From the IMG/VR virus record IMGVR_UViG_3300021964_000091, positions 1 through 54,428 of that record: a DNA stretch of 54,428 nt, one strand, 5' to 3'. Below the pieces are notes generated by a model. The model was given only the letters and a program-made list of their open reading frames with translations. It made no database searches and was not told where the DNA came from. How positions within the stretch are numbered: the stretch's first letter is position 1; each line of letters starts with the position of its first letter. Below, piece after piece: positions 5,786 through 49,565 of this stretch. Source of the stretch: a virus. Position numbers and translations under genes: made by a program.

Positions 5786-6429
5786 TAGACAACATCCTCC
5801 TCATCTAGCCCTGCTCGCTCAGTATCAGTTACTTCTCTACTTTGCGCAGCTACACCAAGAGACTGTGTAAACGACTGTTGGAATAACTGTGCACGTTTTG
5901 AATTAACGTGTTCGTTGTCAACAGACTCAGCCAAGAAAACCGTAGCATCAATCACAACAGGAAAATAAGCATCTGCTAATAGAGCTACAGTAGTAGTGCC
6001 ATCATAAGTTGGTGGCGTTTGTGCATATTCACCGACTAGCACTTGTCCGCTAGGGGCTTTCGGATAAATAAAAAATTTGTTTGCGTTTCTAACATGACGC
6101 ATATAGTTAACAGCAGCACCTGCAGCATCATTCATCCAAGAAGGGTATGCTTGATCTAGTGCTTCTCTGTTTGTTTCAATAATTCCGTTACCATTTTTAA
6201 CTGAGTAAATATCTATCAATCGAATAGAATCAGAAGGCATAGACTGAATAACAGAATCTGCAGTACAAGTGATGTCACCAATATAAGCAAAAAGATCAGG
6301 ACGCAACACAGCAATACGCTTAAGCGCTTGGTTTGCAAATCCTATCAGTACAGAATCAGAATAACGCTGTGGGCTATTTGTATCCTGTAGGATTCTTCTT
6401 ACCTCTGTAATGACATCATTTAATATCAT
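5785..6429 (-). CDS. Head-tail adaptor (DUF6682-like)
   Basis: 214 aa. It starts at 6429 with ATGA overlap to the upstream gene. The N-terminus (VITEVRRILQDTNSPQRYSDSVL..., NQALKRIAVLRPDLF) matches the pattern of the phage adaptor family I know as DUF6682: short helices, RxLQD, and a RYSD/RWSD motif. The middle has FFIYPKAPSGQVLVGEYAQTPP, a beta turn typical of these adaptors. Probably docks to the portal or to the 217-aa protein encoded immediately downstream. Confidence 0.7.
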   Translation of the reverse strand: MILNDVITEVRRILQDTNSPQRYSDSVLIGFANQALKRIAVLRPDLFAYIGDITCTADSVIQSMPSDSIRLIDIYSVKNGNGIIETNREALDQAYPSWMNDAAGAAVNYMRHVRNANKFFIYPKAPSGQVLVGEYAQTPPTYDGTTTVALLADAYFPVVIDATVFLAESVDNEHVNSKRAQLFQQSFTQSLGVAAQSREVTDTERAGLDEEDVV

Positions 6430-6665
6430 TTAGGCAATCCTTTACTTGCTTCTTCCGCAAGGACTTCAGGTGTAGAGTCTCCATCTTCTGGAATCTCTGT
6501 TTCTAAATTTACTTTAGCCTTACGAGTGCTTTGTTTTTTTGTAATAAACTTTTCTGGGAACGCTTGTTCCTCAGTAATTTCTTCAGTGTTAGGATTCTCA
6601 GCTAGAATTTCATTCCAACCGTAAATCTCACCATCTTTTATATTTCGTAACCATCGGCCTGCCAT
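6426..6665 (-). CDS. Small hypothetical protein
   Basis: 79 aa. Two adjacent ATGs exist (6668 and 6665); 6665 lies 6 nt after GGAG and overlaps the upstream TGA, so it is preferred. N-terminal RWLRNIKDGEIYGWNEILAENPN resembles the short Trp-containing module found in many phage small proteins; the C-terminal half is Glu-rich and probably disordered. It sits among small basic proteins between the decoration protein and the adaptors. Role unknown. Confidence 0.6.
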   Translation of the reverse strand: MAGRWLRNIKDGEIYGWNEILAENPNTEEITEEQAFPEKFITKKQSTRKAKVNLETEIPEDGDSTPEVLAEEASKGLPK

Positions 6666-32936: not shown

Positions 32937-33372
32937 AGCCGCCACTGCAATGATATGTATGGCTCACGCCATATACTTTGAAGCTAGGTCTGAGTCTACT
33001 GCGGCACAACTTGCTGTGGCACATGTAATCTTTAATAGGGTTGAAGACCCTAGGTTTCCTAACACTGTGTGTGAGGTTGTAACCGAAGGATTACGCCACG
33101 GTTCAGGTGTAATGAAAAGACATAAGTGCCAGTTCAGTTTCTATTGCGACGGAAAACCCGAACAAATTTCCGAACAAATAGCATACAGAAAAGCAGAGTT
33201 AATAGCATACTCAGCCTTAGATACTTACGCACAGTATGATATTACTGATGGAGCCACACATTATCATGCTGATTATGTGGCACCTGCATGGGCTACCGCA
33301 GATAGATTTACTAAGACTACTTGTATAGATAAACATTGTTTCTATAGATTAGAAACTACTGCAAATCGCTAG
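32926..33372 (+). CDS. SleB-type cell wall hydrolase
   Basis: 148 aa; last plus-strand gene. The pattern YFEARSESTAAQLAVAHVIFNRVEDPRFPNTVCEVV and KCQFSFYCDG matches the Hydrolase_2 (SleB/CwlJ) family, with the catalytic Glu in FEARSE. The C-terminus has DGATHYHADYVAPAWA, typical of the family. No signal peptide stands out, although residues 1-16 are mildly hydrophobic. It is a second cell wall enzyme, distinct from the GH108 endolysin at 49566. Its 3' end overlaps the opposing 2672-aa gene by 17 bp. Confidence 0.85.
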   Translation: MILEAATAMICMAHAIYFEARSESTAAQLAVAHVIFNRVEDPRFPNTVCEVVTEGLRHGSGVMKRHKCQFSFYCDGKPEQISEQIAYRKAELIAYSALDTYAQYDITDGATHYHADYVAPAWATADRFTKTTCIDKHCFYRLETTANR

Positions 33373-36300
33373 GGTCTATACCATATAGTTGCATTAGATC
33401 ATCGATCTCCTGCCTGATATTCTTAGGCGCAAACTTCTTATATCGTAGGATAGTTGGGTTCTTAGCCGCATTGTATGAACGGTTAGCAGACCTAATGAAT
33501 CCTTTGAACTCAAACTCTGTACCTTTATGGTATCGGTTATGCTCGTTCACATCCTGAATAATTCTGTTCATTTCTGCTACATCATTATTTAATTTAGCTT
33601 TTACATATTGCTGAGTGTAAGCCATCTTAAGTGATTTCACATAAGCATCAGTATGTTTTCCTATCCTAACCACATCATTCTGCAGCGTAGCGATTGCAGG
33701 ATAGAAGCCCATCATACGAGCAATAGCAGTCGTTAATGGTACTTCGTTAGAGATTACATTACCTTTGGAATTGGTAATCCTTCCATCGTTTAGATATGTC
33801 CAACCATCAGCCATACCTCGGACTGCTGATACAGGAGAATCACGCAGGATATCTACAAAGTTTGTAGTGTCATCCTTAAGTCCTAATACTTCAGCACCAT
33901 ACTTAGCTAGTTGACCACCTGTAGCAAACATACCTTGGATACCGTTATATACAGGGCCAAGGAAGTTCTCAGCTTCACGCCATGGGTCTGCACCTGCTTT
34001 AAGTGCGCCTGATAGTGGGATCAAATCACCAAAACCTAGTCGAGTAGATATGGTTGCACCAGTGAATCGGTCTATGAAACCACGCATTAATACTTGTGAT
34101 GACCCCGGATACACACTGTCAAAGAACGTGGCAAGTTCTTTCTCTATGCTTGCCATCTTAATACCGAACATCTGAGCAAGAGTATCAACCAAATCCATTA
34201 GGTCATCTGCAAATGGTAGTCCTTTCAATCCTGATGCAAACAGTAGCATACCTAGGAATATTGCACGTTCCTTAGTAGCCATTCCTCTCATCAACTGAAC
34301 GCTGATAATAACGAATTGTTTATACATAAATACATATTGGAGTACGTTACCACGAGCCATCTCTGGTCGGTTATACATAGCGTATTCACCTTGAGATGTG
34401 TTCACAGCTTTACGTCCAAATTCTGACGCACGTTCCTGTGCTTCAGCTTGTGTAGCACCTGCCGCTAGTTGTCTTTCTCTTTCAAGTCTATAAGCCGCCA
34501 TGAATGTAGTTCTACGGTTCATCTGCTCTGTGTAAGAGAACATAGACATCCATGCTTTAATAGCAGATGCAGTCTTATTACTATTCACACCACCCCTAGC
34601 AGTACCTACTAGTGCATTGAATTGTGCCGCTTGTAGTACGCCTTCTGCTGTAGCATCTCGTAAGGCTATGGCTTCGTCTTCTGATAGACCATGTTTCTGC
34701 TGTAGTTCTGTGTTGTTAGCAACCTCATTAACATAACTATAATTAGCAAGATTCTTATTCCACATATTACCTGATGATCTCATCATGGCTGCTGCCGATA
34801 AAGTCATACCAAATCCACCACCATAACCACGTTTAGGGTTATAGGTACTTAGATAAGGGATAGAGTGGGTTACCATTGAGATGGCGTTAATAGCTGCTGT
34901 AGCTACTGATCCACCCAACTGGAATAAGACAGCAAACAATTTGAAACGAGAACCGACTTCACCTGACAACATATCTTCTGTTGACTGATCGATGTTAGCC
35001 GCGTCAGAGTACCAAGCAAGAAGTCGTTTAGCTTCTTCTCTATAGTTTTCACCTCGGCCTTCAGTCTGTGCTTTTTTAGACTGTCTGGTTCCATCACCAT
35101 TTGCTTTACCATATAGATTAACAGTTTTACTTCTACCTACATCAGCACTGTATTGGTACATAGCTGCATAAGCATCGTATTCTTGGCGAGCAATCTTAAT
35201 TCTTTCAGGGTTACCCTGTCTTTCTGCTCTGAGCATAGCATCTTCAAGACGCTTAAGTTTCTCAGGGTTACCTCTCCACATGCTGTTATCAAGCATGATT
35301 CGATTTAGTTTGTGGCGATAAAAAGTCTTACCGGCAATATGACCTTGAGTCTCAAGATGCTCGGATACACTACGAACTACGTCAGTATCCCATCCTGCTA
35401 CGCCTGAACGTTGTAGGCTACGTCTTGCTCGTTCACCCTGTTTAGTCAAGGCAACAACAATACGCTCACGTTCTTGTGGAGTAATATTAACACTCAATCT
35501 CTGCAATACATCTACGAACTCACTTAGGTTTACTGTGTGAGTCATAGGTTGTGACTGTCTAGCTGTACCAAACTCAGCTTCAAATGTTACTTTAACTTCG
35601 TTTCCGTCGTTATCTAGAACAGTAAACTGTTTACCACCGAATGATTCATCTAAAGCACGTTGAATTTCTCTAGCATCTGCACGACTATTTACTTGGTAGT
35701 AAGGCATAGAACTCTTGTATGCCTCGTCCATATTAACTGCTTTGCCATTAGCCATAGCTTTAACCATGACCTGATACTTACCACGTCTAGTGAATGGTAC
35801 ATATGCACCCATGATAGTACGCTTAGCTAGGAACTCAGCATTAGCATTCTTAACATCTAACAGGTAGATATTCTGGATTGCATTAGTAATATTGTAGGCT
35901 TGGTTCTCACTTAATCCCAACGCATTAAGTCTTTCTAGACCATCAATAATATCTTGGAACTCATCACCTTGGAACTGCTCTGTATTATCAGTGCCTGCTT
36001 TCCAGTCATTAAGTTTGTTTTGATTCCACATTGCACGGTTGATAGCCGCAATAAAGGTCTTAGCTTTCTCAATAGATGCTTCTTTATACTTAAGACCTGC
36101 GCCTTCCTGAACCGCACCTTCTTTATAAAGACGTGTGTATTCATCAATAACTCTACGCAGAGTCTGTATTTCTACAGTAGTAGGAGCGTTACCAGCAGAC
36201 CCAACAACATTTTTAAATCCTTCCAGTGCTTCGTTCTTCTGATCTAATGCAGCACCAAGGTTGGCTTCAAGCACATCAAGTGCAGCTTGGTTTACCGCAG

Positions 36301-39300
36301 CCCTTTGTTCTTGGTAGATACGCCACACATTATCAGTAATAGCAAACGCAGGTTTGTAGACAGAAGGTTGTGTGTTCTCTTGTCCTTCAACAATATCTAG
36401 TACTACTTCAATACCGTTAGTAAATTCATCTCTAGTTACTTCTCCTGCCTGCCTGATTCTTTCAAAAGCATTAGGATCAATAACAATATTTCCGTTAGCG
36501 TCAGCTACAGCAAGGTTAGGCATATCACGAATCATTTGTTCCGTGGTTGCTTTACCTTTAAACAATGCTGCATAAGCTAGTAGTTCACCAGCTTGTTGTA
36601 GTTCTTCAGTAGTAGGGCCTCCACCAAATCCAAACCATTCAGGTGTGTGAGAGAAGGCAGTAAGTTTTTCATACTCAGCATGTAGTCGTTTAACCCTAGC
36701 TGACTGTTGTTGGAAAATCTTAAATACTTCTGAAAGACCTTCACTACGCAAAGCCATATTATCTAGAGTCTGTACTTTCTCTAAGGCTTCACCTAACCAG
36801 TTTGCTAGGTCTCTAGTATTAGTTACATCTTTAGCTCGTTTAGCTAGTTCAGATACACCTGTAAAACTACCATACTGACCTGCTTTCTTATTCAAACCAA
36901 ACTGGCTGAACAATGTAGAAGCTAGGTCAGCACGGTCATCTTCAAGGGAGAAGCGTCCATACATGCTGTCCTGTGTTAGTCTTTCTAAGTTTTTACTTAG
37001 CTGTCGACCATTGACAAAGAATCCGCCACCTGAGCGTAAGTTTCTACGAGATTGACTAATCAGGTACCGGGACATGTCATCACCGAACGTAACCCCAAAC
37101 TTGTTGAGGAAGTTCTTAACAGCAGCCCAAAATCTGGCTACGAAATGTACATCCATATAGGCCGCAGCATCAGCCATTGCTTCTTCAATAGCCTCGTGCA
37201 TATCCATACCTGCTTCCATCTTACGATCAGCAACAGCACGGATATGGCCTTCAGTTCTATAAATATCTCTGAGGATAGCATTGAGCCTTCTGTCAGGCAT
37301 GAATGCTCTAAATCCAAAGTGACCTAGTGTTTCGTGGGCTACAACAAACTGAACCTGTTGCTCAGTTTTAGCGTAGTCAGCAAAGATAATAATCTGGTCA
37401 CCAACTGAGAAACCTACAGCCGGTGTAGTTTCAAAGTCAGGTCGGCTACGCATAGCCCTGTTAAATAACTCAGGGTTAGTTTGTCTAAGTTCTGCCACAT
37501 TCTGAACAACAGTGACAGTTGGTTTAATCTTAAGACCTTTAAGAACCTTGTTAACAATTAATTTAATCTTACCTTTAGGCACAGGGTTTTGGATTACAGA
37601 ACCATCTTCTGCTCTGTAGAAGTTACCATCTTCATCATCAAACGCACCAAACATTTCATCGTCACTCTTACTACGAGTATCCAATGTCATTTCTTCGGCT
37701 TGTCTTAATGCTTCTAGTTGTTCTCTTTCACGCTCAGCAGCTTTAAGTCTTGCTGCTTTCATTTGAGCCTGACGTTCTTTCAACTGTTCTTGGGTATATT
37801 CCTTAGTAGTAGGTACAAGCCTACCATCACCTGACCCTACAAGTTTAAGTTCACCGTTCTCATTAAAGTATTCTTTAAGCTTAGGCCCTCTACCCATACG
37901 ATATTCAGGGTCTGCTTTAGCAAACAACTGGTTAAGCCTAATAATTTCTTTAGAATTTCTACGCTTAATTTGGTTAATTGCTTGATCTCTAATCTGTAGA
38001 TCAATCTGTTTCTCAAGCTCTTGACTTGCAGCAAACTGCACCTGCTCTGAAGTTTCCTCAATAACAGCAGGTTCTTGAACTTGTTCTTGTTCTACCTGAG
38101 CGATTGGTTCTGCTACAACCTCTGCTTGTTTAGCTTTATACCACTTAGGCATTGCTCTCATTGGAGCTTTAATAGCATCTAATAGATTACGCTGAGCACC
38201 AAAGGTTACCCATGCTTTATCCTTACCACGATAAGTTCCTGTAAGATTGTCGTTTAGATTCGCGCCAGCAACAAAGGCTTCATCAATAGCTTTCCATTGT
38301 TTCTCACTAAATTGAGTGTTGTTTATATAAGCTAATGCTCTGTCTCTAATACTAAGACCACCACCTGCGGTTTTCTTACCGAGGTTAGAATCAGTATTAA
38401 ACAGTGCATAATCAAGAATAGTTTCAGCTGCGTATGCAAAAGTGGTTGCATCAGTGGCAGTATCAAAAAAGGTTACCGCTTCCTCTAGTTCTTGTAGAGG
38501 AGTTAGTTCCATATCAGCACGAGCTTTGTCATAAATTTCTTTAGTCTGCTCGTAAGTAATAGAACCACTATTTACTAGCTGTTCAAACTCTTGCCTCTGT
38601 GCAGCAGGGATATCATCAAGTGGGATATCTGTAACACCCATGTCTTCCCATGCTTCATACGGAGAATCGTATGCAGTTACACTAGATACGGCGGCTTCTT
38701 CTTTGACAGCGGGTCTGCTATCCTGTTGCCTTTCTTGTTGTGCTTGATCTGTTGGTTGCGGAGTTTGTTCTTGTTTAGCTCTTTGCTCTGCAACTTGTTC
38801 CGTGATCTGTTCTTGGCTAGCAATCTCGCTCGCTTTCGTTTTTCTGAGTCGCTGAGCTTTCCTACCCGTTGTGGTAGTTGTCTGTTCTCCGGTGTCTCTG
38901 ACTCGAATTGGTTCGCCAGCTTGGGGTTGTTCGCGTACATCCACTTCCGCTGGGCTTCGCTCTTGAACGGCATCTTCACCCCTCCTTAATGTTGTAGCCG
39001 CAGGAGCTACAGGAGCTGCAGGCTCGTCAAAAGGTAGTGTCAGTTGACCAGCGGCTTCTAGTTCAGCGGCAGTTGGTTGTTGTGGTTCTGCAGCGACAGG
39101 TTGTGGCTGTCTCTGTAACCTTCTCAATCCGTATGGAACAGCAAACCCCGGCAGACTTGGCTGCACAGGTTCTCTAGCTGCTGATACCATTGGCATCTTA
39201 AGCTGAGCATTTTCCTCAGCTAATCTTTCATTCTCTGCAATAATCTGTTCGATCCTTGCAGTTTCTAATTCTTTAATCTGTTGTTCTTGACGCTGACGTA

Positions 39301-41374
39301 AAGCTTCATCGAACTGACGTTGACGTTCAGCACGAGTTCTTTCAGCTTCTAATTCTTGTTTAACAATTTCAGCTTCCTGTATAGCCTGCTGAGTTTCAAC
39401 CTTCTGTTGTTCTTCACGAGCTAATGCAGCCTGAAGCATCTGCTGACCCATAGCAGTTTGTTGTGTTTCTGGTTGCTGCGCTGCAACCTTCGTAGCTGCA
39501 ATCGTTGGGTCTTCTAATGGTAGCTGTTGCTGACCAGTAACTTGGTCTTCTAATACCTGATTTGACGTAGGTACAGCCTGTCCTGCAGGATCAACTACAA
39601 CTGTTTGGTTATTTAAAGCCTGTTCTATTGTGTTATTTGTGCCACCCTGTTGCTCATTTGCAACAGTAGGTGCCTGTGTTGTGACAGGTTGTTGTGGTGT
39701 AACTGTCGGTGTTGCTGCCGGGGCCTGATTTTGTCCCATTTCTTCAGCAGAAAACAACTCCATTTGAGTTCCACTAGGGGCTGGGAGGGCACCTGCAACA
39801 GAGGGAGGAGCTGGCAATGCGCCTGCAACCGTGCCACCTAGTGGATTCGGATTAGGATTCTCTGGATCAACTGGGGTAGTACTAGAAGATGGTTCAGGAT
39901 TCTGTTCAATCTGTAGTAGATTGGTTGCTTCACCCTTCTTAAGGGTATTAGCTACTGAACCTATTGGGCCACCTACTGCAGCACCTGCCGCAAAAGCATT
40001 AATAAGTCTGTTAATTACTTGTTTATCATTTAAATCAAACTGGTCTGTACCTGCAAGTAAGATAGTTTCTTGAGCAGCTTCTGTTACACCTTCAAGAGTA
40101 GCGCCTACTGCGAAACCTTTACCTGCTCGCTTAGCGATTCCACCCCTAGCCATAGCAGCTGGAGATAGTACAGAATTAGGTACACCAAAGATTTTACCAG
40201 CTAAGAAAAATTCTGATAGAGATTCTAAAGCAGCATATGGAATAGCACCTAATGCGGCTGTATATCGGTCACCTACACCTGTATCTCTTACTTCACCATA
40301 GATATCACCAAGGCCAATACCATAAGAACTAACGCCTGATCCTATTGCTGCACCGCCTACTATAGCTTGGTTTCTACCAACTCTATTAGCTTTTTGTGCA
40401 CCTGCTAGGATTGCGTCATCAATCTGTGATTTGATACCAAAAGTATTTCGTTTAAGTGCTGCTTGTCCTGCAGGGTTGACTACAAAAATCTTAGGATTCT
40501 TAAGCTGTGCTACACCAGTAAGACCTGCAACTTCACGAAGAAGTTTTCTCTCACCATTACTAAGAGCTTCACCTTTCATATACTTTTTAGCAGCTACAAG
40601 AACTGCTCGTTTGAAAGACTCTTTACCCATAGTAGTTAGGATTGCACCACCTACAGCACCGAATGGGGTACCAGTTGTAACAGCACCAACCCCTGCACCT
40701 ACTAGTGCAGATGCAACAGACTCAATAAGCATTGGCCCTTGCTGTGCAAGGTTAGCTACAAACCAATCGAGCGCACCATGAGATTCAGAATCACCAAATT
40801 CTATATTAGTAAATTCACGTTGGAATGGTTGGTTATAGTACAGTTCTTTAACTGCTTCATTAACCCAAGCCTGACCTGTTTCTTCTGCACCAAAAAACTG
40901 AGCAGCTCTACCACCAAGAAGTTTTAGATTACTACCACCAATTTCAAAGTTACGTTTCATCAGCGTACCCCAATCAGGGTTTCTGATTCCGCCTATATAC
41001 TCATCATAAACTTGTGGTTCTACAACCTGCCAGTTATAACCAGCGGGTGCATCGGCTCTTGGCTGTTGGATATAAGGTACTGAATCCATTGCTGACTGTG
41101 CATCATCAGCATCAAACATAGCACCATTCACAAACATCTTGTTAGCATTAGGATCATAAAGAACCTGAGGCCCAGACGTTTTAGGCTTAAGCATCTCAGG
41201 CATTTCAAACTGAGATGATTTAATAATGGCTTCACCTAATGCGGCTGTATCCGCCATAGATGTATTAAGGTTACCTACGCCAATATCTGGTTGGGGATCG
41301 TAAGGATTACCTACTGGATTTATATCCATGGCATTTAGTGGAATGCTGCCGAATGAGAGTCCAGCTTTTGCCAT
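33356..41374 (-). CDS. Giant internal virion / polyvalent protein with zincin domain
   Basis: 2672 aa, ATG at 41374 after GGAGC. The N-terminal third has hydrophobic Gly/Ala-rich stretches (about 210-260 and 450-490). Residues about 500-900 are Gln/Glu/Pro-rich and coiled-coil-like. At 1347-1352 is HETLGH, a zinc-metalloprotease motif, followed by EEAMAD near 1397, a candidate third ligand. The C-terminal region around 2284 (TEQMNRRTTFMAAY) resembles the large polyvalent protein-associated domain 38 pattern. Giant ejected proteins of short-tailed phages form the channel for DNA entry; polyvalent proteins carry enzymes into the host. A separate gene (38677-38973) is nested inside. The last stop overlaps the convergent SleB gene. 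Confidence 0.85.
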   Translation of the reverse strand: MAKAGLSFGSIPLNAMDINPVGNPYDPQPDIGVGNLNTSMADTAALGEAIIKSSQFEMPEMLKPKTSGPQVLYDPNANKMFVNGAMFDADDAQSAMDSVPYIQQPRADAPAGYNWQVVEPQVYDEYIGGIRNPDWGTLMKRNFEIGGSNLKLLGGRAAQFFGAEETGQAWVNEAVKELYYNQPFQREFTNIEFGDSESHGALDWFVANLAQQGPMLIESVASALVGAGVGAVTTGTPFGAVGGAILTTMGKESFKRAVLVAAKKYMKGEALSNGERKLLREVAGLTGVAQLKNPKIFVVNPAGQAALKRNTFGIKSQIDDAILAGAQKANRVGRNQAIVGGAAIGSGVSSYGIGLGDIYGEVRDTGVGDRYTAALGAIPYAALESLSEFFLAGKIFGVPNSVLSPAAMARGGIAKRAGKGFAVGATLEGVTEAAQETILLAGTDQFDLNDKQVINRLINAFAAGAAVGGPIGSVANTLKKGEATNLLQIEQNPEPSSSTTPVDPENPNPNPLGGTVAGALPAPPSVAGALPAPSGTQMELFSAEEMGQNQAPAATPTVTPQQPVTTQAPTVANEQQGGTNNTIEQALNNQTVVVDPAGQAVPTSNQVLEDQVTGQQQLPLEDPTIAATKVAAQQPETQQTAMGQQMLQAALAREEQQKVETQQAIQEAEIVKQELEAERTRAERQRQFDEALRQRQEQQIKELETARIEQIIAENERLAEENAQLKMPMVSAAREPVQPSLPGFAVPYGLRRLQRQPQPVAAEPQQPTAAELEAAGQLTLPFDEPAAPVAPAATTLRRGEDAVQERSPAEVDVREQPQAGEPIRVRDTGEQTTTTTGRKAQRLRKTKASEIASQEQITEQVAEQRAKQEQTPQPTDQAQQERQQDSRPAVKEEAAVSSVTAYDSPYEAWEDMGVTDIPLDDIPAAQRQEFEQLVNSGSITYEQTKEIYDKARADMELTPLQELEEAVTFFDTATDATTFAYAAETILDYALFNTDSNLGKKTAGGGLSIRDRALAYINNTQFSEKQWKAIDEAFVAGANLNDNLTGTYRGKDKAWVTFGAQRNLLDAIKAPMRAMPKWYKAKQAEVVAEPIAQVEQEQVQEPAVIEETSEQVQFAASQELEKQIDLQIRDQAINQIKRRNSKEIIRLNQLFAKADPEYRMGRGPKLKEYFNENGELKLVGSGDGRLVPTTKEYTQEQLKERQAQMKAARLKAAEREREQLEALRQAEEMTLDTRSKSDDEMFGAFDDEDGNFYRAEDGSVIQNPVPKGKIKLIVNKVLKGLKIKPTVTVVQNVAELRQTNPELFNRAMRSRPDFETTPAVGFSVGDQIIIFADYAKTEQQVQFVVAHETLGHFGFRAFMPDRRLNAILRDIYRTEGHIRAVADRKMEAGMDMHEAIEEAMADAAAYMDVHFVARFWAAVKNFLNKFGVTFGDDMSRYLISQSRRNLRSGGGFFVNGRQLSKNLERLTQDSMYGRFSLEDDRADLASTLFSQFGLNKKAGQYGSFTGVSELAKRAKDVTNTRDLANWLGEALEKVQTLDNMALRSEGLSEVFKIFQQQSARVKRLHAEYEKLTAFSHTPEWFGFGGGPTTEELQQAGELLAYAALFKGKATTEQMIRDMPNLAVADANGNIVIDPNAFERIRQAGEVTRDEFTNGIEVVLDIVEGQENTQPSVYKPAFAITDNVWRIYQEQRAAVNQAALDVLEANLGAALDQKNEALEGFKNVVGSAGNAPTTVEIQTLRRVIDEYTRLYKEGAVQEGAGLKYKEASIEKAKTFIAAINRAMWNQNKLNDWKAGTDNTEQFQGDEFQDIIDGLERLNALGLSENQAYNITNAIQNIYLLDVKNANAEFLAKRTIMGAYVPFTRRGKYQVMVKAMANGKAVNMDEAYKSSMPYYQVNSRADAREIQRALDESFGGKQFTVLDNDGNEVKVTFEAEFGTARQSQPMTHTVNLSEFVDVLQRLSVNITPQERERIVVALTKQGERARRSLQRSGVAGWDTDVVRSVSEHLETQGHIAGKTFYRHKLNRIMLDNSMWRGNPEKLKRLEDAMLRAERQGNPERIKIARQEYDAYAAMYQYSADVGRSKTVNLYGKANGDGTRQSKKAQTEGRGENYREEAKRLLAWYSDAANIDQSTEDMLSGEVGSRFKLFAVLFQLGGSVATAAINAISMVTHSIPYLSTYNPKRGYGGGFGMTLSAAAMMRSSGNMWNKNLANYSYVNEVANNTELQQKHGLSEDEAIALRDATAEGVLQAAQFNALVGTARGGVNSNKTASAIKAWMSMFSYTEQMNRRTTFMAAYRLERERQLAAGATQAEAQERASEFGRKAVNTSQGEYAMYNRPEMARGNVLQYVFMYKQFVIISVQLMRGMATKERAIFLGMLLFASGLKGLPFADDLMDLVDTLAQMFGIKMASIEKELATFFDSVYPGSSQVLMRGFIDRFTGATISTRLGFGDLIPLSGALKAGADPWREAENFLGPVYNGIQGMFATGGQLAKYGAEVLGLKDDTTNFVDILRDSPVSAVRGMADGWTYLNDGRITNSKGNVISNEVPLTTAIARMMGFYPAIATLQNDVVRIGKHTDAYVKSLKMAYTQQYVKAKLNNDVAEMNRIIQDVNEHNRYHKGTEFEFKGFIRSANRSYNAAKNPTILRYKKFAPKNIRQEIDDLMQLYGIDPSDLQ
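38677..38973 (-). CDS. Small conserved phage protein nested out of frame in the giant gene
   Basis: 98 aa read in another frame of the same strand as the 2672-aa gene. ATG at 38973 is preceded by TAAGGAGG with 7-nt spacing, the strongest kind of ribosome site. The N-terminus (MPFKSEAQRKWMYANNPKLANQFESETPENRQLP) matches a small stand-alone protein very common in phages (PFKSxxQRxWMyanxPxxAxxw), of unknown role. The giant protein frame here (residues 801-899) is a low-complexity Gln/Glu/Arg linker, so it can tolerate a second code. The last ~40 residues are Lys/Asn-rich and may be less constrained. Confidence 0.8.
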   Translation of the reverse strand: MPFKSEAQRKWMYANNPKLANQFESETPENRQLPQRVGKLSDSEKRKRARLLAKNRSRNKLQSKELNKNKLRNQQIKHNKKGNRIADPLSKKKPPYLV

Positions 41375-41375
41375 G

Positions 41376-44141
41376 TTATTTTGCTCCGCTATTTATAACA
41401 CTCTGTACATTTGATGTTAAATATGGGTTGCCTGATGAAGCTGACCCAGAGATTAAACTTATTCCATCAGCAAGAGATATTTTCTTAGTTCCCGGTGCAT
41501 AGTACTTATCACCATTAGGTTTAGTATGTTCCATCATTGGGTCAAATAAGTAAACCTCAGAACCTATTTGCACAATACCTTTACCAGAACCATCACCAAT
41601 AGCTTTAAACTCACCTTTCATCATCTTAATCTGCTCTAGTAACGCATTAGCTTTGGATGTTAGTTCTTTATCGACTTTGAGTTTGATAAGGTCTGCATTA
41701 ATTTTTTGTTGTTCTTTCGTCATATCTAGTTGTGCATCAAAAATCTTCATAGATTTCTCAGCAGCAACTTGGTTAATCTGAGTCTTGTATGATGAATCGA
41801 ACTGAAGCTGAGCTAAGTGAGATATCTCTCGCATGCTCATACCTTCTTGTACCACAGTACCATCCATCTGCAGATTAAACTTACCATCAGAACGTGGGAC
41901 AATTCGTACATCCCTGCCTGAATACATAGACCAAACCATAGATAGACGGTTGGTGTTATTACCGTACCTTAAATCATTAAGACCCTGCATACCTTGCAGA
42001 TAAATCATACCCTGATCTATCTTAGTTACAGTATCCCTAGCAGTTACAAGGCTAGTTAGCATACCTTCTGCTGCTTCTTTATACTTAAGGAAGTTATCTA
42101 TATCACCTGAAATTCTGTAGATTTCTGCAATTCGTTTATATTCCTGTGATTTCTTCTGAGCAATTTGAAAAATCTGAACTGCTTCAGTTCTAGTTTTCTT
42201 AGCTTGCTCCATATCATAAGTAACTTTTGATGGATTCTGTATATAAATCGCAGGGGTATCAATACTTTTGTCTTTGGGTGTATCACCAGAACCTAAGTTA
42301 CCGCTGCCTAGATCAACACCAACTTGGTCACCAGTGGTGACTTTAGTATCTTTACCTGAATCAACTGTTTGTAGAGAACTAACATTGTCAGTAGCAACAG
42401 CTGTGTTATTTGCATTATTAGACTTAGCTTCTGTTTCTACTTTAGTTGTAACTTGATCGCCTACACCAGCGCTTAGCTTAACTTTAAGCTGGTTATATTC
42501 TGTAATAAGTTTTGAATTTTCAGCAGCCGAAATATTTGGATCAGCAAGTAACTTACCAATCTCATTCATACGATCCATCGCCGCTTTTCTGTCATCACCT
42601 GTAATAGCAGGTAATTTCAAACCAGCTTGGGCTTCTGTGTCTTTTGTAGTAGAATCAGGAAGAATGGTTACATTCTCTGGTGTATATGTAGAACTGCTAG
42701 CTGTAGCACCAAACGCAGTTGGAAACTGATCCAACATACCGTTGTAGATTCTAATTACTGCAGAGTTATAATCATTATTTGTAAGCGACCCATCATTAGC
42801 TACAGAAGGAGTACCTCGTTGAAGGGTTCCTTCCATACCACCTTGGTAACCTGCAGCAAGCAAGTTCTTAGGTACACCAATATATTCACCATACTTCAGA
42901 TATAAGATACCTGCAGCTATCTGGTGTTGAGGATTAGTTGGGTCTAACGATGCAGCAAGCTGTTGAACCTGCTGTGAAATTCCATATTTTTTAATATTTG
43001 TTGGGTTTGTGTACCAACCTTTCATTTGTTGGAACGTAGAATCAGCGACCTGCATAGGCCCTTGAATGGTAACTTTACTACCATTCTTAAGTTCAAACTC
43101 TTTAGGTGCTGTATCAACCCTACCAAAATCTGATTCAATACCTAGAATTGCTAGAGAAAACGCAGTATCAAAACCAATTATCTTAGAGTAATTTAATACA
43201 TCTGTAGATGATGGTTGACTAAATCCTGTAGTTAAATCTTTAAGCCTAGCTGTAACAATAGTATCTGCTGTCTTAGCTGATTTCTTTGTAACAGCTCTAT
43301 CTTCTCTTAGAGGTGCTTCTTTAACAAAAGTTTTGTGGTAACCAATAGGGTCTAGTGCAGCCCATTGCAGTTGATTAGGGTTTTGTTGAAAATATTTTTT
43401 AGCATCATCAGAATCATACCAGTCAAATGCTTCTTTACTTGCTTTACGCTGTTCTACTTCATCAGGATCATCAAAGAAATAACCATACATACGCCCAGCA
43501 GGAGAAGATGCAAGCATATCTCCATAACCTGTAGCAATACGATCTCTGATTTTCATCATGATGGCATTGAAGTCACTATTAGCAAACATCTTATCAAGAC
43601 TTTGCATAAACTGAGATGACTCAGTATCAACCTGAGTAATATCAGGAGTGCCACTCATACCGACTTTTGACATATCAAAGTCAGCTTCAGGGTTATAATC
43701 AGGGATAGTCAGGTGACTAGGTTGTACGTTAGTCCCTTCTAAATAATTTTCTTTACCTGTTTTAGTTTCAGCACCTTCAATGGTTTTAGTACCATCTTGG
43801 TTCTCAGTAATTTTAGGCCCAACTGCATCAGGTACAACTGGTTTAGTGCCGTCCCCTTCTGTACTAGGTACAACAATTTTCTCTGGCCCTTTAGGTTTTT
43901 CTTCAGGTGGAGGAGGTGGAATATAAAGTTGATCCGAACCAAATCCACTAGAATCTAGATTAGGCTGATTGCGCAAGGCAATATCAGGCAGCTGCACTCC
44001 GGGTGCATAGTCCTGCATATTAATACGGGTTTGGTTTTTACGTTGTAAATCCTGAAGATCACTCTCCAGTCTTGCACCACGATTAAAAGCGTCAGAGTCT
44101 TGACCTAACGCAGTTCCTACAAACCCTCGCAATCCTGCCAT
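41376..44141 (-). CDS. Internal virion protein with lytic transglycosylase domain
   Basis: 921 aa, ATG at 44141 after GGGG, upstream of the giant gene by 1 bp. Residues about 325-440 form an SLT-type lytic transglycosylase: AILGIESDFGR with catalytic Glu336, GPMQVADSTFQQMK, and QHQIAAGILYLKYGEYIGVPKNLLAAGYQGG. Flanking regions are Pro/Gly/Lys-rich and then a long helical part with coiled coils. Such ejected proteins cut the peptidoglycan during DNA entry (like T7 gp16). Position before the giant protein agrees. Confidence 0.88.
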   Translation of the reverse strand: MAGLRGFVGTALGQDSDAFNRGARLESDLQDLQRKNQTRINMQDYAPGVQLPDIALRNQPNLDSSGFGSDQLYIPPPPPEEKPKGPEKIVVPSTEGDGTKPVVPDAVGPKITENQDGTKTIEGAETKTGKENYLEGTNVQPSHLTIPDYNPEADFDMSKVGMSGTPDITQVDTESSQFMQSLDKMFANSDFNAIMMKIRDRIATGYGDMLASSPAGRMYGYFFDDPDEVEQRKASKEAFDWYDSDDAKKYFQQNPNQLQWAALDPIGYHKTFVKEAPLREDRAVTKKSAKTADTIVTARLKDLTTGFSQPSSTDVLNYSKIIGFDTAFSLAILGIESDFGRVDTAPKEFELKNGSKVTIQGPMQVADSTFQQMKGWYTNPTNIKKYGISQQVQQLAASLDPTNPQHQIAAGILYLKYGEYIGVPKNLLAAGYQGGMEGTLQRGTPSVANDGSLTNNDYNSAVIRIYNGMLDQFPTAFGATASSSTYTPENVTILPDSTTKDTEAQAGLKLPAITGDDRKAAMDRMNEIGKLLADPNISAAENSKLITEYNQLKVKLSAGVGDQVTTKVETEAKSNNANNTAVATDNVSSLQTVDSGKDTKVTTGDQVGVDLGSGNLGSGDTPKDKSIDTPAIYIQNPSKVTYDMEQAKKTRTEAVQIFQIAQKKSQEYKRIAEIYRISGDIDNFLKYKEAAEGMLTSLVTARDTVTKIDQGMIYLQGMQGLNDLRYGNNTNRLSMVWSMYSGRDVRIVPRSDGKFNLQMDGTVVQEGMSMREISHLAQLQFDSSYKTQINQVAAEKSMKIFDAQLDMTKEQQKINADLIKLKVDKELTSKANALLEQIKMMKGEFKAIGDGSGKGIVQIGSEVYLFDPMMEHTKPNGDKYYAPGTKKISLADGISLISGSASSGNPYLTSNVQSVINSGAK

Positions 44142-46842: not shown

Positions 46843-47193
46843 CTACTCTCCTTTTATTTGTTTAATAAGTGCATTTAACACCGCCCTAGTATACGCTAGG
46901 TCATTTGCTAAAGTTTGCACATCTGTAATAAGTTTACCATAATCTTCAAGACCTGCTACCTCTTGACTACTAATAGTAAACCCAGCGCCTTTTGCACTTA
47001 CTTGTTTCATGTCTTGTTCAGACATTTGCTTAATGGTAACCTGACCTTGAGTAACTGCTTTACTCTGAAGATCAGACTCACCACGAAGTCCTGTTAACAG
47101 CTCCACATTCTCTTTCACAGAGCTAATCAAAATACTTTGCCAGTCAGTTATACCTCCTTGTGGTACTGCTGGTATTGCTGTAAATCTAGCCAT
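46843..47193 (-). CDS. Small virion-block hypothetical protein
   Basis: 116 aa. The start at 47193 overlaps the preceding stop (TAATG). Mostly helical, amphipathic sequence: LISSVKENVELLTGLRGE, TIKQMSEQDMKQVSAKGAG, ISSQEVAGLEDYGKLITDVQTLANDLAYTRAVLN. No motif recognised. Lies between the tail tubular protein and the internal virion proteins. Confidence 0.65.
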   Translation of the reverse strand: MARFTAIPAVPQGGITDWQSILISSVKENVELLTGLRGESDLQSKAVTQGQVTIKQMSEQDMKQVSAKGAGFTISSQEVAGLEDYGKLITDVQTLANDLAYTRAVLNALIKQIKGE

Positions 47194-49565
47194 TACACCG
47201 CCCTCAATCCATAAGGCGTTTCACCAAAGTGAATAGCTCTAATTCTAGACGAACCAGATACACCTACTTCGAATGTATCCGATCTGTAGCCACTAGGCAA
47301 TCTAAATATATCACTAGAGCTTACAGTTGCTTGAAATACCAAGGTTTTATCTGCCCATAGTTTAAATGTAACAGGTAACACACCTGTCAAGTCTTTTAGA
47401 GTACGAGTCATACCATCCCCGTTTATAGGAAAAGCATTAAGAGTTCCAATATTATTTACAGCTACGCCTGCATCAGTGTAGTCAGTAGGCCCATTGAGTG
47501 GAGCTAATTGGATTGATTTAGCCCATATAGCGTTATTATAAGCAGGGACACTGTTATTATAAGCTTGGATATTTGCAGCTTCAGCGTCAGGAGTTTGGAA
47601 GTCTGCGATAACTCTAGCAGCACCTAAGTTAATATAGTCCTTAGTTACTAGTGTTTTAGATTTCCATTCAAGCGGAGAAAGAACTTGGTTTACATTATCC
47701 CATTCATAGATATCTCCATTACTACCTGCGACATAATACATGATTCCTGTTTCTGTATCGGTATAAGCAGCAGTAAATTGATATTCAATACTTACAAAAA
47801 ACCCACCTACTTTATCATCACGTTCAAAAATAAATGAACTAGAACTATGTGACCCAAAATATTTACCATTATAAAAATGACCTATAAGAGTAGACGGGTC
47901 TAAAGTATCATTCCATGTATCCCAATCGTGGACAAACTTAGTAATAAGGTCAATACCTGTAGATGGTGAGAATACAGCAAGACCACCGTGAGTAGCCCAT
48001 ACAATACCATAACCCATATTAACAACTGATCGTTTAGATAAACATGGATACAGTGTATCAATACGAGATGACACCATAGTTGCTGGGTCGTTACCAGAAA
48101 CTTGGTATGGATAATCTTTTGTTAGAACCGTAACATAACCTGCGTTTGGCTGAATAGCTACAATCTCAGACTCAAACGTCATTCTATATATTTCAGGCCA
48201 AGCATGTGGTTTATCAGGAAATGAAAAACATAACTGGTTACTAGTAAATCCTACAAGAATATTATTATGTGCTGCTTTAAGACCCTGCATATTAGAAGGT
48301 GGTGCATCATAATTTTCTGATGGAACAATCGTTGTTAGACCTGATACAAGAAAGTCATCAGTAAAATTATAACTGCCATCACCCCAGTATCTAGCCGAGC
48401 TGGTAGCAAGTTCAGAAACATCGTGATACATAGTGCCAGAAGTGGCAGCTGTAGTACCTACATCAGTAGCAGTTTGAGCATACTTAATAGTATAGTCGTC
48501 AACTACTTCTGTAACTACGCCGCCTGTAATATCAAAAGAAGAATCTGAACAACCACTTATTTTAAATCGGTCATCTACAATAAAATTATGATGATCATCA
48601 AACTTAACAGTAGACACGTTACTTGTTCTAGAAACTTCAGTTACAGTTCTAGGAAACCATAAAGTTCCTAACAAGAAGTAATCGGTAACAGAAGCTGATA
48701 CAACACTTCGATAAAGTCTAATACCTCTAATAAAATTCTGTCCTGATGGCGGAGCAGTAGGTAAACTACTTACAGTAGAACCTTGTCCTTCTTTAATATA
48801 AGACTCGTTAGAAGGTAAACTTGGTATGGATTCTTCGTTCCATGGTGTTACCCATGTATATATGTAAGTTCTAATTTGTGTATTACCCGCAAGATCAGCT
48901 CGACCTGTAGTGTTTGCAGTTTTAGATACTGCGTCACCGGGGCTAAAGTATTGGAAGTCAGTAGAGTTAATAACTGTAATCTCTACGTTAGTAGCATTAA
49001 AAGACTTAGCTTCATCAGAAGTACCAAAGTCACGAACAGTTACAACGTTACCTGAACGAAGGTTATGTGCAGAACCACCATAAAACGTAGCTGTGTTACC
49101 TGAGTCACGTTCATAATGCGTAGAACTAACCACACTAAAAGATACTGCTGTGTTAACAGGCTCAGTATCAGGTAGTGGTAAACCTAGTTCATAATAACCA
49201 TTAGTAACAGGATAAGGCTCACTACCATCTGTTGCTAACTCATAGTTAGATACTTTAGGTACACCATCGCCTGTATAATAAAACCGTTGCTCATCATCTC
49301 CTGCGTCACTAGCAGTAGCGATGTCGACTTCAGTAAGCCACGATAACCAGACATTAGCATTAGTTGATGGATTTTTAAGCGCATGTAAAGTCTTAATAGT
49401 TCCTGTACGCTCTGTGCTATCAACTATCACAGGTGTACGGTAAGGCAACAGATCACCTGAATACAACTTTACATTAAAAGCTGTTTGTGCTGCGCCATCA
49501 GGTAACAACTCAGAAGAAATCTTCGGAGCTTCACCTAGGAACTTAATTAACTTTACTGATGCCAT
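47193..49565 (-). CDS. Tail tubular protein B-like (790 aa)
   Basis: 790 aa, close to the 794 aa of T7 gp12. Starts with SVKLIKFLGEAPKISSELLPDGAAQTAFNVKLYSGDLLPYR, the typical beginning of podovirus nozzle proteins (residues that fix the protein to the tail tube), and continues as a beta-rich protein with many aromatic and Asp/Gly turns. ATG at 49565 after GGAG. Likely forms the tail nozzle through which DNA exits. Direct neighbour of lysis genes on one side and internal virion proteins on the other. Confidence 0.75.
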   Translation of the reverse strand: MASVKLIKFLGEAPKISSELLPDGAAQTAFNVKLYSGDLLPYRTPVIVDSTERTGTIKTLHALKNPSTNANVWLSWLTEVDIATASDAGDDEQRFYYTGDGVPKVSNYELATDGSEPYPVTNGYYELGLPLPDTEPVNTAVSFSVVSSTHYERDSGNTATFYGGSAHNLRSGNVVTVRDFGTSDEAKSFNATNVEITVINSTDFQYFSPGDAVSKTANTTGRADLAGNTQIRTYIYTWVTPWNEESIPSLPSNESYIKEGQGSTVSSLPTAPPSGQNFIRGIRLYRSVVSASVTDYFLLGTLWFPRTVTEVSRTSNVSTVKFDDHHNFIVDDRFKISGCSDSSFDITGGVVTEVVDDYTIKYAQTATDVGTTAATSGTMYHDVSELATSSARYWGDGSYNFTDDFLVSGLTTIVPSENYDAPPSNMQGLKAAHNNILVGFTSNQLCFSFPDKPHAWPEIYRMTFESEIVAIQPNAGYVTVLTKDYPYQVSGNDPATMVSSRIDTLYPCLSKRSVVNMGYGIVWATHGGLAVFSPSTGIDLITKFVHDWDTWNDTLDPSTLIGHFYNGKYFGSHSSSSFIFERDDKVGGFFVSIEYQFTAAYTDTETGIMYYVAGSNGDIYEWDNVNQVLSPLEWKSKTLVTKDYINLGAARVIADFQTPDAEAANIQAYNNSVPAYNNAIWAKSIQLAPLNGPTDYTDAGVAVNNIGTLNAFPINGDGMTRTLKDLTGVLPVTFKLWADKTLVFQATVSSSDIFRLPSGYRSDTFEVGVSGSSRIRAIHFGETPYGLRAV

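What the first reader, a model, noticed from the sequence alone, without database searches (positions are those of the whole stretch)
38677..38973. A conserved small phage gene nested out of frame inside a 2672-aa virion protein gene
Seen: within the giant gene, in the same strand but another frame, an ATG at 38973 sits 7 nt after TAAGGAGG and opens a 98-codon frame starting PFKSEAQRKWMYANNPKLANQFESETP. Known: very similar proteins occur as stand-alone phage genes. In the giant protein frame this stretch (residues 801-899) is a Gln/Glu/Arg linker without recognisable fold. The two codes therefore overlap where one is permissive. Inference: either the small gene was captured when two neighbouring genes fused across it, or it arose by overprinting. 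Fusion is attractive because the small gene would once have stood between two virion genes.
Basis: partly seen in the sequence, partly recalled or inferred. Interest (0 to 1): 0.85.

Follow-up and report, generated by a model that had tools for sequence, protein, structure and literature searches.

The report
Conserved small gene inside giant gene
Many uncultured phages, and at least one cultured phage group, carry a small, probably translated gene hidden in a second reading frame inside a very large virion-protein gene; other phages carry the same small gene on its own, so one stretch of DNA is kept by selection to spell two proteins at once.

Summary
The 98-codon ORF (38677-38973, minus strand, +1 to the 2672-aa giant ORF) is real and almost certainly a gene. 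It recurs, always in +1, in about 50 distinct homologous giant (PLxRFG-type) genes whose core domains are as little as 30% identical. It also recurs in other hosts: a second giant family that includes the cultured Elemovirus phages of Flavobacterium, and a ~400-aa gene between portal and capsid genes. The start codon is conserved. A Shine-Dalgarno core precedes 50 of 50 starts in giant genes, against 9.6% of other +1 ATGs. Between close relatives, giant-frame third positions fall from ~45% to 9-16% divergence over the ORF. The +1 frame is open in 61/61 nested but 2/54 stand-alone copies. Stand-alone homologues (PHROG_1375-like, function unknown) are common; several lie next to portal or giant genes, one is fused to a MuF head protein. 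A tree test mildly rejects a single nested clade (p=0.03). Which frame is older is unsettled: breadth of distribution favours the small gene, a confounded codon-usage test favours the giant frame. Split giants exist, but none has the small gene between its parts. Likely role (inferred): a small basic helical head/ejection protein co-expressed with the giant.

The parts
38677..38973 (-). nested small ORF, 98 codons plus stop, +1 relative to the giant ORF; PHROG_1375-like small phage protein
38981..38988 (-). Shine-Dalgarno sequence TAAGGAGG, 7 nt before the nested ATG
   Evidence: duplex energy -12.6 kcal/mol, in the top 0.13% of other +1 ATGs inside giant genes
38839..38973 (-). first 45 codons: conserved domain FKSEAQRKWMYANxPxxAxxxExxTPxxxxLPxRV; helical hairpin at residues 6-15 and 17-26
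   Evidence: alignment; AlphaFold2 pLDDT about 90-96 in the first 20 residues
38734..38850 (-). predicted long basic helix, residues 42-80 of the small protein; absent or shorter in many relatives
33356..41374 (-). host gene: 2672-aa giant virion-type protein
33464..34957 (-). PLxRFG domain (NCBIfam NF032893) at the C-terminus of the giant, residues 2140-2637
   Evidence: E 2.4e-54, above curated cut-off
41376..44141 (-). 921-aa gene directly upstream of the giant in the same run of genes; no family match
47193..49565 (-). internal virion protein (phrog_511) in the same late gene run
   Evidence: E 4.3e-108

Best explanation
The ORF is a genuine gene nested in the giant gene. Ribosomes initiate inside the giant's mRNA at the strong internal Shine-Dalgarno site and translate the small protein in the +1 frame, while other ribosomes read through in the giant frame, where the same bases encode a tolerant acidic, polar linker. 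Shown by sequence: conserved start, Shine-Dalgarno site and open frame, and selection in both frames across many lineages. Inferred: actual translation. Origin (inferred, about 0.6): the small gene is the older, mobile element of late gene clusters, standing next to portal or giant genes; host genes have grown across it more than once, always in +1, because that frame of this Lys/Arg-rich gene reads as an acidic, Cys-free linker. Function (inferred, about 0.4): a small basic helical head or ejection-apparatus protein produced together with the internal protein it serves.
For: Nested in the +1 frame in about 50 distinct PLxRFG-type giant genes and 11 other host ORFs, plus Elemovirus MT497067 and MW202828. 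Among giant loci covering the site, 65 have it and 11 lack it; 32 versus 6 clusters at 80% identity. Start codon ATG/GTG at or within two codons of the conserved first residue. Shine-Dalgarno core 50/50 versus 384/3995 control ATGs. Codon-position rates follow the small frame: small pos3 > pos1 > pos2, the reverse of host-only coding; its wobble is less free than in stand-alone copies. Window versus L004/L009: giant third-position divergence 0.09-0.16 inside the first 45 codons, 0.41-0.51 outside. +1 frame open 61/61 nested versus 2/54 stand-alone. Nested copies not one clade, AU p=0.03. Same giant family with the small gene nested or stand-alone directly behind it. Stand-alone or fused copies next to portal, or on a MuF protein.
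Against: No expression data were available. Several giants lack the ORF (L003, L011, L012, L019, L142, L149, L162, L010), with no copy elsewhere in those records, some of which are partial, so it is dispensable or replaceable. Codon usage fits the giant frame better than the small frame in 40 of 49 cases, which by the usual criterion would make the giant frame older; in an overlap both measures are distorted. The AU p-value is marginal and rests on 46 columns. Shine-Dalgarno signals are weak in the non-PLxRFG hosts (4 of 11). Many stand-alone copies are not near portal or giant genes.
Confidence: 0.85

Rival explanations
1. Birth inside, then escape: the small protein arose de novo by overprinting in an ancestral giant gene and was later copied out as a stand-alone gene.
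For: Codon usage fits the giant frame better than the small frame. Nested copies are very common in one giant family and in one frame. The two giant families may share a remote N-terminal relation (L099 vs L110, E about 8e-6), which would allow one ancient nesting.
Against: The nested copies do not form one clade. The ~400-aa host gene is unrelated to the giants and overlaps the small gene only in a low-complexity N-terminal part.
Confidence: 0.25
2. The nested frame is expressed by ribosomal frameshifting from the giant frame, giving a truncated giant with a small-domain tail.
For: The relative frame is constant (+1), as a frameshift would need.
Against: Upstream in-frame stops lie within a few to tens of codons in most cases, so only a short window could be used. 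A start codon is retained at the conserved place and a Shine-Dalgarno core precedes it in 50 of 50 giants. Stand-alone homologues begin at the same methionine.
Confidence: 0.04
3. Chance ORF: an open frame in a compositionally permissive linker with accidental resemblance.
For: The linker is permissive: 2.7% of synonymous resamples stay open for 98 codons.
Against: Family score 92.6 bits versus at most 43 in 5,000 resamples; conservation across giants as little as 30% identical; third-position suppression.
Confidence: 0.01
4. A double-coding cassette (both frames together) moved between host genes, rather than separate overprinting events.
For: Always the same frame in three host types. The host-frame peptide DAVQ(E/K)xSxxEVDVRExxxDG is alike between host genes that are otherwise unrelated.
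Against: Host-frame likeness is expected as a by-product of small-frame conservation. The nested copy of L073 groups with stand-alone L076/L077 rather than with copies nested in PLxRFG giants.
Confidence: 0.15
5. Fusion exactly: two virion genes flanking the small gene fused across it.
For: The nested site lies in the linker between an N-terminal domain and the core of the giant, and two relatives are split near there.
Against: In split L018 the small ORF sits within the N-terminal part, and in split L077 behind the last part. The split in L010/L018 looks like a shared insertion of tail-type genes.
Confidence: 0.2

Closest known systems
Embedded two-component spanins Rz/Rz1 of lambda and T7 (PMC6139136)
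   Same: Small phage gene wholly nested in the +1 frame of a larger gene, with its own start; often missed by gene callers; embedded, overlapped and separated architectures exist.
   Different: No lipoprotein signal or membrane segment here; the host is a giant virion-type gene; the same small family occurs both nested and separate, which the spanin survey did not find within one family.
PHROG_1375 (small phage proteins, unknown function)
   Same: Same N-terminal motif; 12 of 14 aligned relatives match it, best E 1.4e-4.
   Different: The window protein itself matches only at E 0.46 and has a longer basic tail; the nested members looked at are not annotated.
PLxRFG-domain giant virion proteins (NCBIfam NF032893; F116/H66-type phages)
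   Same: The host gene is a member.
   Different: tblastn with the small ORF found no copy in F116-type phages; the nested gene has not been described for this family as far as searched.
Overprinted genes of small viruses (reviewed in PMC8227390)
   Same: Dual coding, internal +1 overlap, a disordered partner, synonymous-site suppression.
   Different: There the inner gene is usually the young, orphan one; here the inner gene has the wider distribution.

Membership tests
nested (overprinted) same-strand gene | wholly contained in another ORF in a different frame | tested here: met
nested (overprinted) same-strand gene | conserved open frame and start across diverged relatives | tested here: met
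nested (overprinted) same-strand gene | selection on the inner frame (codon-position and synonymous-site pattern) | tested here: met
nested (overprinted) same-strand gene | both products made | not testable with these tools
   no proteomics or ribosome profiling held; only initiation signals
PHROG_1375 | profile match | tested here: inconclusive
   window protein E 0.46; 12 of 14 aligned relatives match, best 1.4e-4
PLxRFG giant (NF032893), host gene | domain above curated cut-off | tested here: met
   185 bits against cut-off 100
embedded o-spanin (Rz1-like) | lipoprotein signal and lipobox Cys | tested here: not met
   the 98-aa sequence has no Cys at all
embedded o-spanin (Rz1-like) | host gene is an i-spanin with an N-terminal membrane segment in the lysis cassette | tested here: not met
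   host is a PLxRFG giant

The most novel reading that the evidence does not exclude
A widespread small phage gene has been overprinted repeatedly and independently by unrelated large virion genes, always in the same relative frame. Here the pre-existing inner gene shapes the host protein's linker, which is the reverse of ordinary overprinting, and the nesting is kept because it couples production of a head/ejection co-factor to its giant partner.
Probability: 0.4. Interest if true: 0.88.

Novelty: new variant of a known kind. Interest (0 to 1): 0.74.

Why it matters
It adds a very widely conserved, generally unannotated nested gene to dsDNA phages, where long same-strand overlaps are rarely established. 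Because the same small gene exists nested in three host types and also free-standing, the usual question of which frame is older can be tested with real outgroups instead of composition alone. It also flags a small protein family associated with portal, MuF and internal virion proteins as a candidate unrecognised head or ejection component, and shows how standard gene calling misses such genes, including in the cultured Elemovirus.

Tried and rejected
Pfam and PDB sequence searches with the small family gave nothing credible. PDB fold search: no match. BFVD fold search matched with confidence only uncharacterised 44-85 aa phage proteins, so it gives no function. tblastn of the full 98 aa against annotated phages: no match; the 39-aa domain was needed. 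The genome-contig scan gave four weak stand-alone-type hits, none nested in a long gene. Codon-usage dating of the two frames was done but is confounded by the overlap. Literature: nothing found on this motif, and no match for a nested gene in PLxRFG giants. Compositional phase bias (PMC2542354) was considered for the constant +1: by that model start codons are commoner in phase 1, but here the start belongs to a homologous gene, and the +2 reading would be Cys/Arg-rich, which I find the better reason. Searches failed on bad arguments and were replaced.

Full report
OBSERVATION. The window is an IMG/VR virus record of 54,428 bases. On the minus strand the ORF 33356-41374 encodes a 2672-aa protein. 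Inside it, in the +1 frame, ATG at 38973 opens 98 codons ending with a stop at 38677; TAAGGAGG (38988-38981) stands 7 nt upstream. The giant residues over it, 801-899, are DAVQERSPAEVDVREQPQAGEPIRVRDTGEQ..., a polar acidic linker.

IS IT MORE THAN CHANCE? Four tests agree. (1) Keeping the giant's amino acids and resampling synonymous codons 20,000 times, 2.7% stay open for 98 codons, and the best of 5,000 scores 43 bits on the small-family profile against 92.6 for the real one. (2) In pairs of nested copies, the small frame's third position varies most and its second least in every divergence band for the giants. If only the giant frame were selected, the giant third position, which is the small second position, should vary most, as it does in a control domain of the giants. 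(3) Between the window and its close relatives L004 and L009, giant third-position divergence is 0.41-0.51 in the flanking parts of the gene and 0.09-0.16 over the first 45 nested codons; four-fold sites show the same drop, and over the rest of the ORF 0 of 16 four-fold site comparisons in three pairs differ. (4) The +1 host frame is open in 50/50 copies in giants and 11/11 in other hosts, but in only 2/54 stand-alone copies, where 3.6% is expected from codon choice. So both frames are constrained.

START SIGNALS. In each of the 50 distinct nested copies in giants a start codon (ATG, in a few GTG) sits at, or within two codons of, the conserved first residue. In-frame stops lie a few to tens of codons upstream in most, which leaves little room for frameshift expression. 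A Shine-Dalgarno core lies 3-16 nt upstream in 50 of 50, against 384 of 3,995 other +1 ATGs in giant genes; the window's site is stronger than 99.87% of sampled controls. Related copies are not independent data points, but clustering at 80% identity still leaves 32 clusters with the ORF and 6 with giants that only lack it (one cluster is mixed).

HOW WIDE IS IT? Giants fetched from IMG/VR (some loci came through the small ORF) carry the ORF in 65 loci and lack it in 11 that cover the site; nested giants are as little as 30% identical in their C-terminal domain. The window giant and those of L086, L103 and L112 belong to the PLxRFG family (NF032893). The same small ORF, again always +1, is nested in a second group of giants: L056 (3315 aa), L073 (1983 aa), the cultured Elemovirus phages of Flavobacterium (3694 aa, MT497067, annotated only as 'structural protein') and MW202828 (3859 aa). 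It is also nested in a ~400-aa gene between portal and major capsid genes, the usual place of a scaffolding protein. Giants without it have no copy elsewhere in the record searched, though some records are partial.

RELATIVES OUTSIDE. Their family matches PHROG_1375, function unknown. In several phages the stand-alone gene lies directly after a portal gene (L081, L061; L066 at 335 nt) or 270 nt after the large terminase gene (L117). In L037 the domain is near the N-terminus of a 1197-aa protein that follows the portal and carries a C39-type peptidase, a MuF domain and an HNH domain. In the second giant family the small gene stands immediately behind the giant in L076, L118 and L110, and behind the last piece of a giant split in three in L077. 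So within one family of giants the gene is nested in some and adjacent in others.

HOW DID IT GET THERE? A tree of 93 domains on 46 columns mixes nested and stand-alone copies (15 changes, at least 4 forced by well supported branches), and forcing the nested copies into one clade is rejected with p-AU 0.03, a modest result. By the distribution criterion (PMC8227390) the small gene is the older code and the giant's linker the newer. By the codon-usage criterion the giant frame looks older (small frame fits worse in 40 of 49), but both frames are distorted by the overlap, so I give this less weight. The constant +1 fits the fact that +1 reading of this Lys/Arg-rich gene gives an acidic, polar, Cys-free peptide, whereas +2 gives a Cys/Arg-rich one. 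The ~400-aa host looks like an N-terminal extension across a small gene that in other phages stands free after the portal.

WHAT DOES IT DO? AlphaFold2 gives a confident helical hairpin (residues 6-15 and 17-26) followed by a long helix (42-80) in the window protein. No solved structure or characterised relative was found. The neighbourhoods (portal, MuF, internal virion giants) and the basic charge suggest a head or ejection-apparatus component; this is inference from context only.

NOVELTY. Nested phage genes are a known kind; the closest is Rz1 in the +1 frame of Rz (PMC6139136). What is new here, as far as I could search, is this gene itself, its breadth, its recurrence in three kinds of host gene in one frame, and a natural comparison set of free-standing homologues.

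Noticed in passing
L010 12590-15680; L018 5280-9250: Two related giants are split at the same linker by a shared insertion of tail-type genes (first inserted genes 47% identical).
   Followed up: partly
L037 5938-9528 (and L038): The small domain is near the N-terminus of a 1197-aa protein with C39-type peptidase, MuF and HNH domains directly after the portal gene, perhaps a head-packaged effector.
   Followed up: partly
window 37313-37339 (minus strand; giant residues 1346-1354): Motif AHETLGHFG in the giant core, mostly invariant across 12 aligned relatives, resembling a zinc-metallopeptidase active site; not tested.
   Followed up: no
L006 and L010, giant linker just before the nested site: MORN-like repeats (YANGDVFEGTF...) occur in the linker of some giants.
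   Followed up: no
L188 9001 and L187 8001 (MW202828.1, MT497067.1): The nested small ORF is missing from the annotation of these public phage genomes; stand-alone copies in C75C1, P-RSP2 and S-CBS2 are also unannotated (L185, L186, L194).
   Followed up: yes
L136 1-600; L150 about 6380-6480: Giant ORF broken between two frames at one point, either sequencing error or decay.
   Followed up: no
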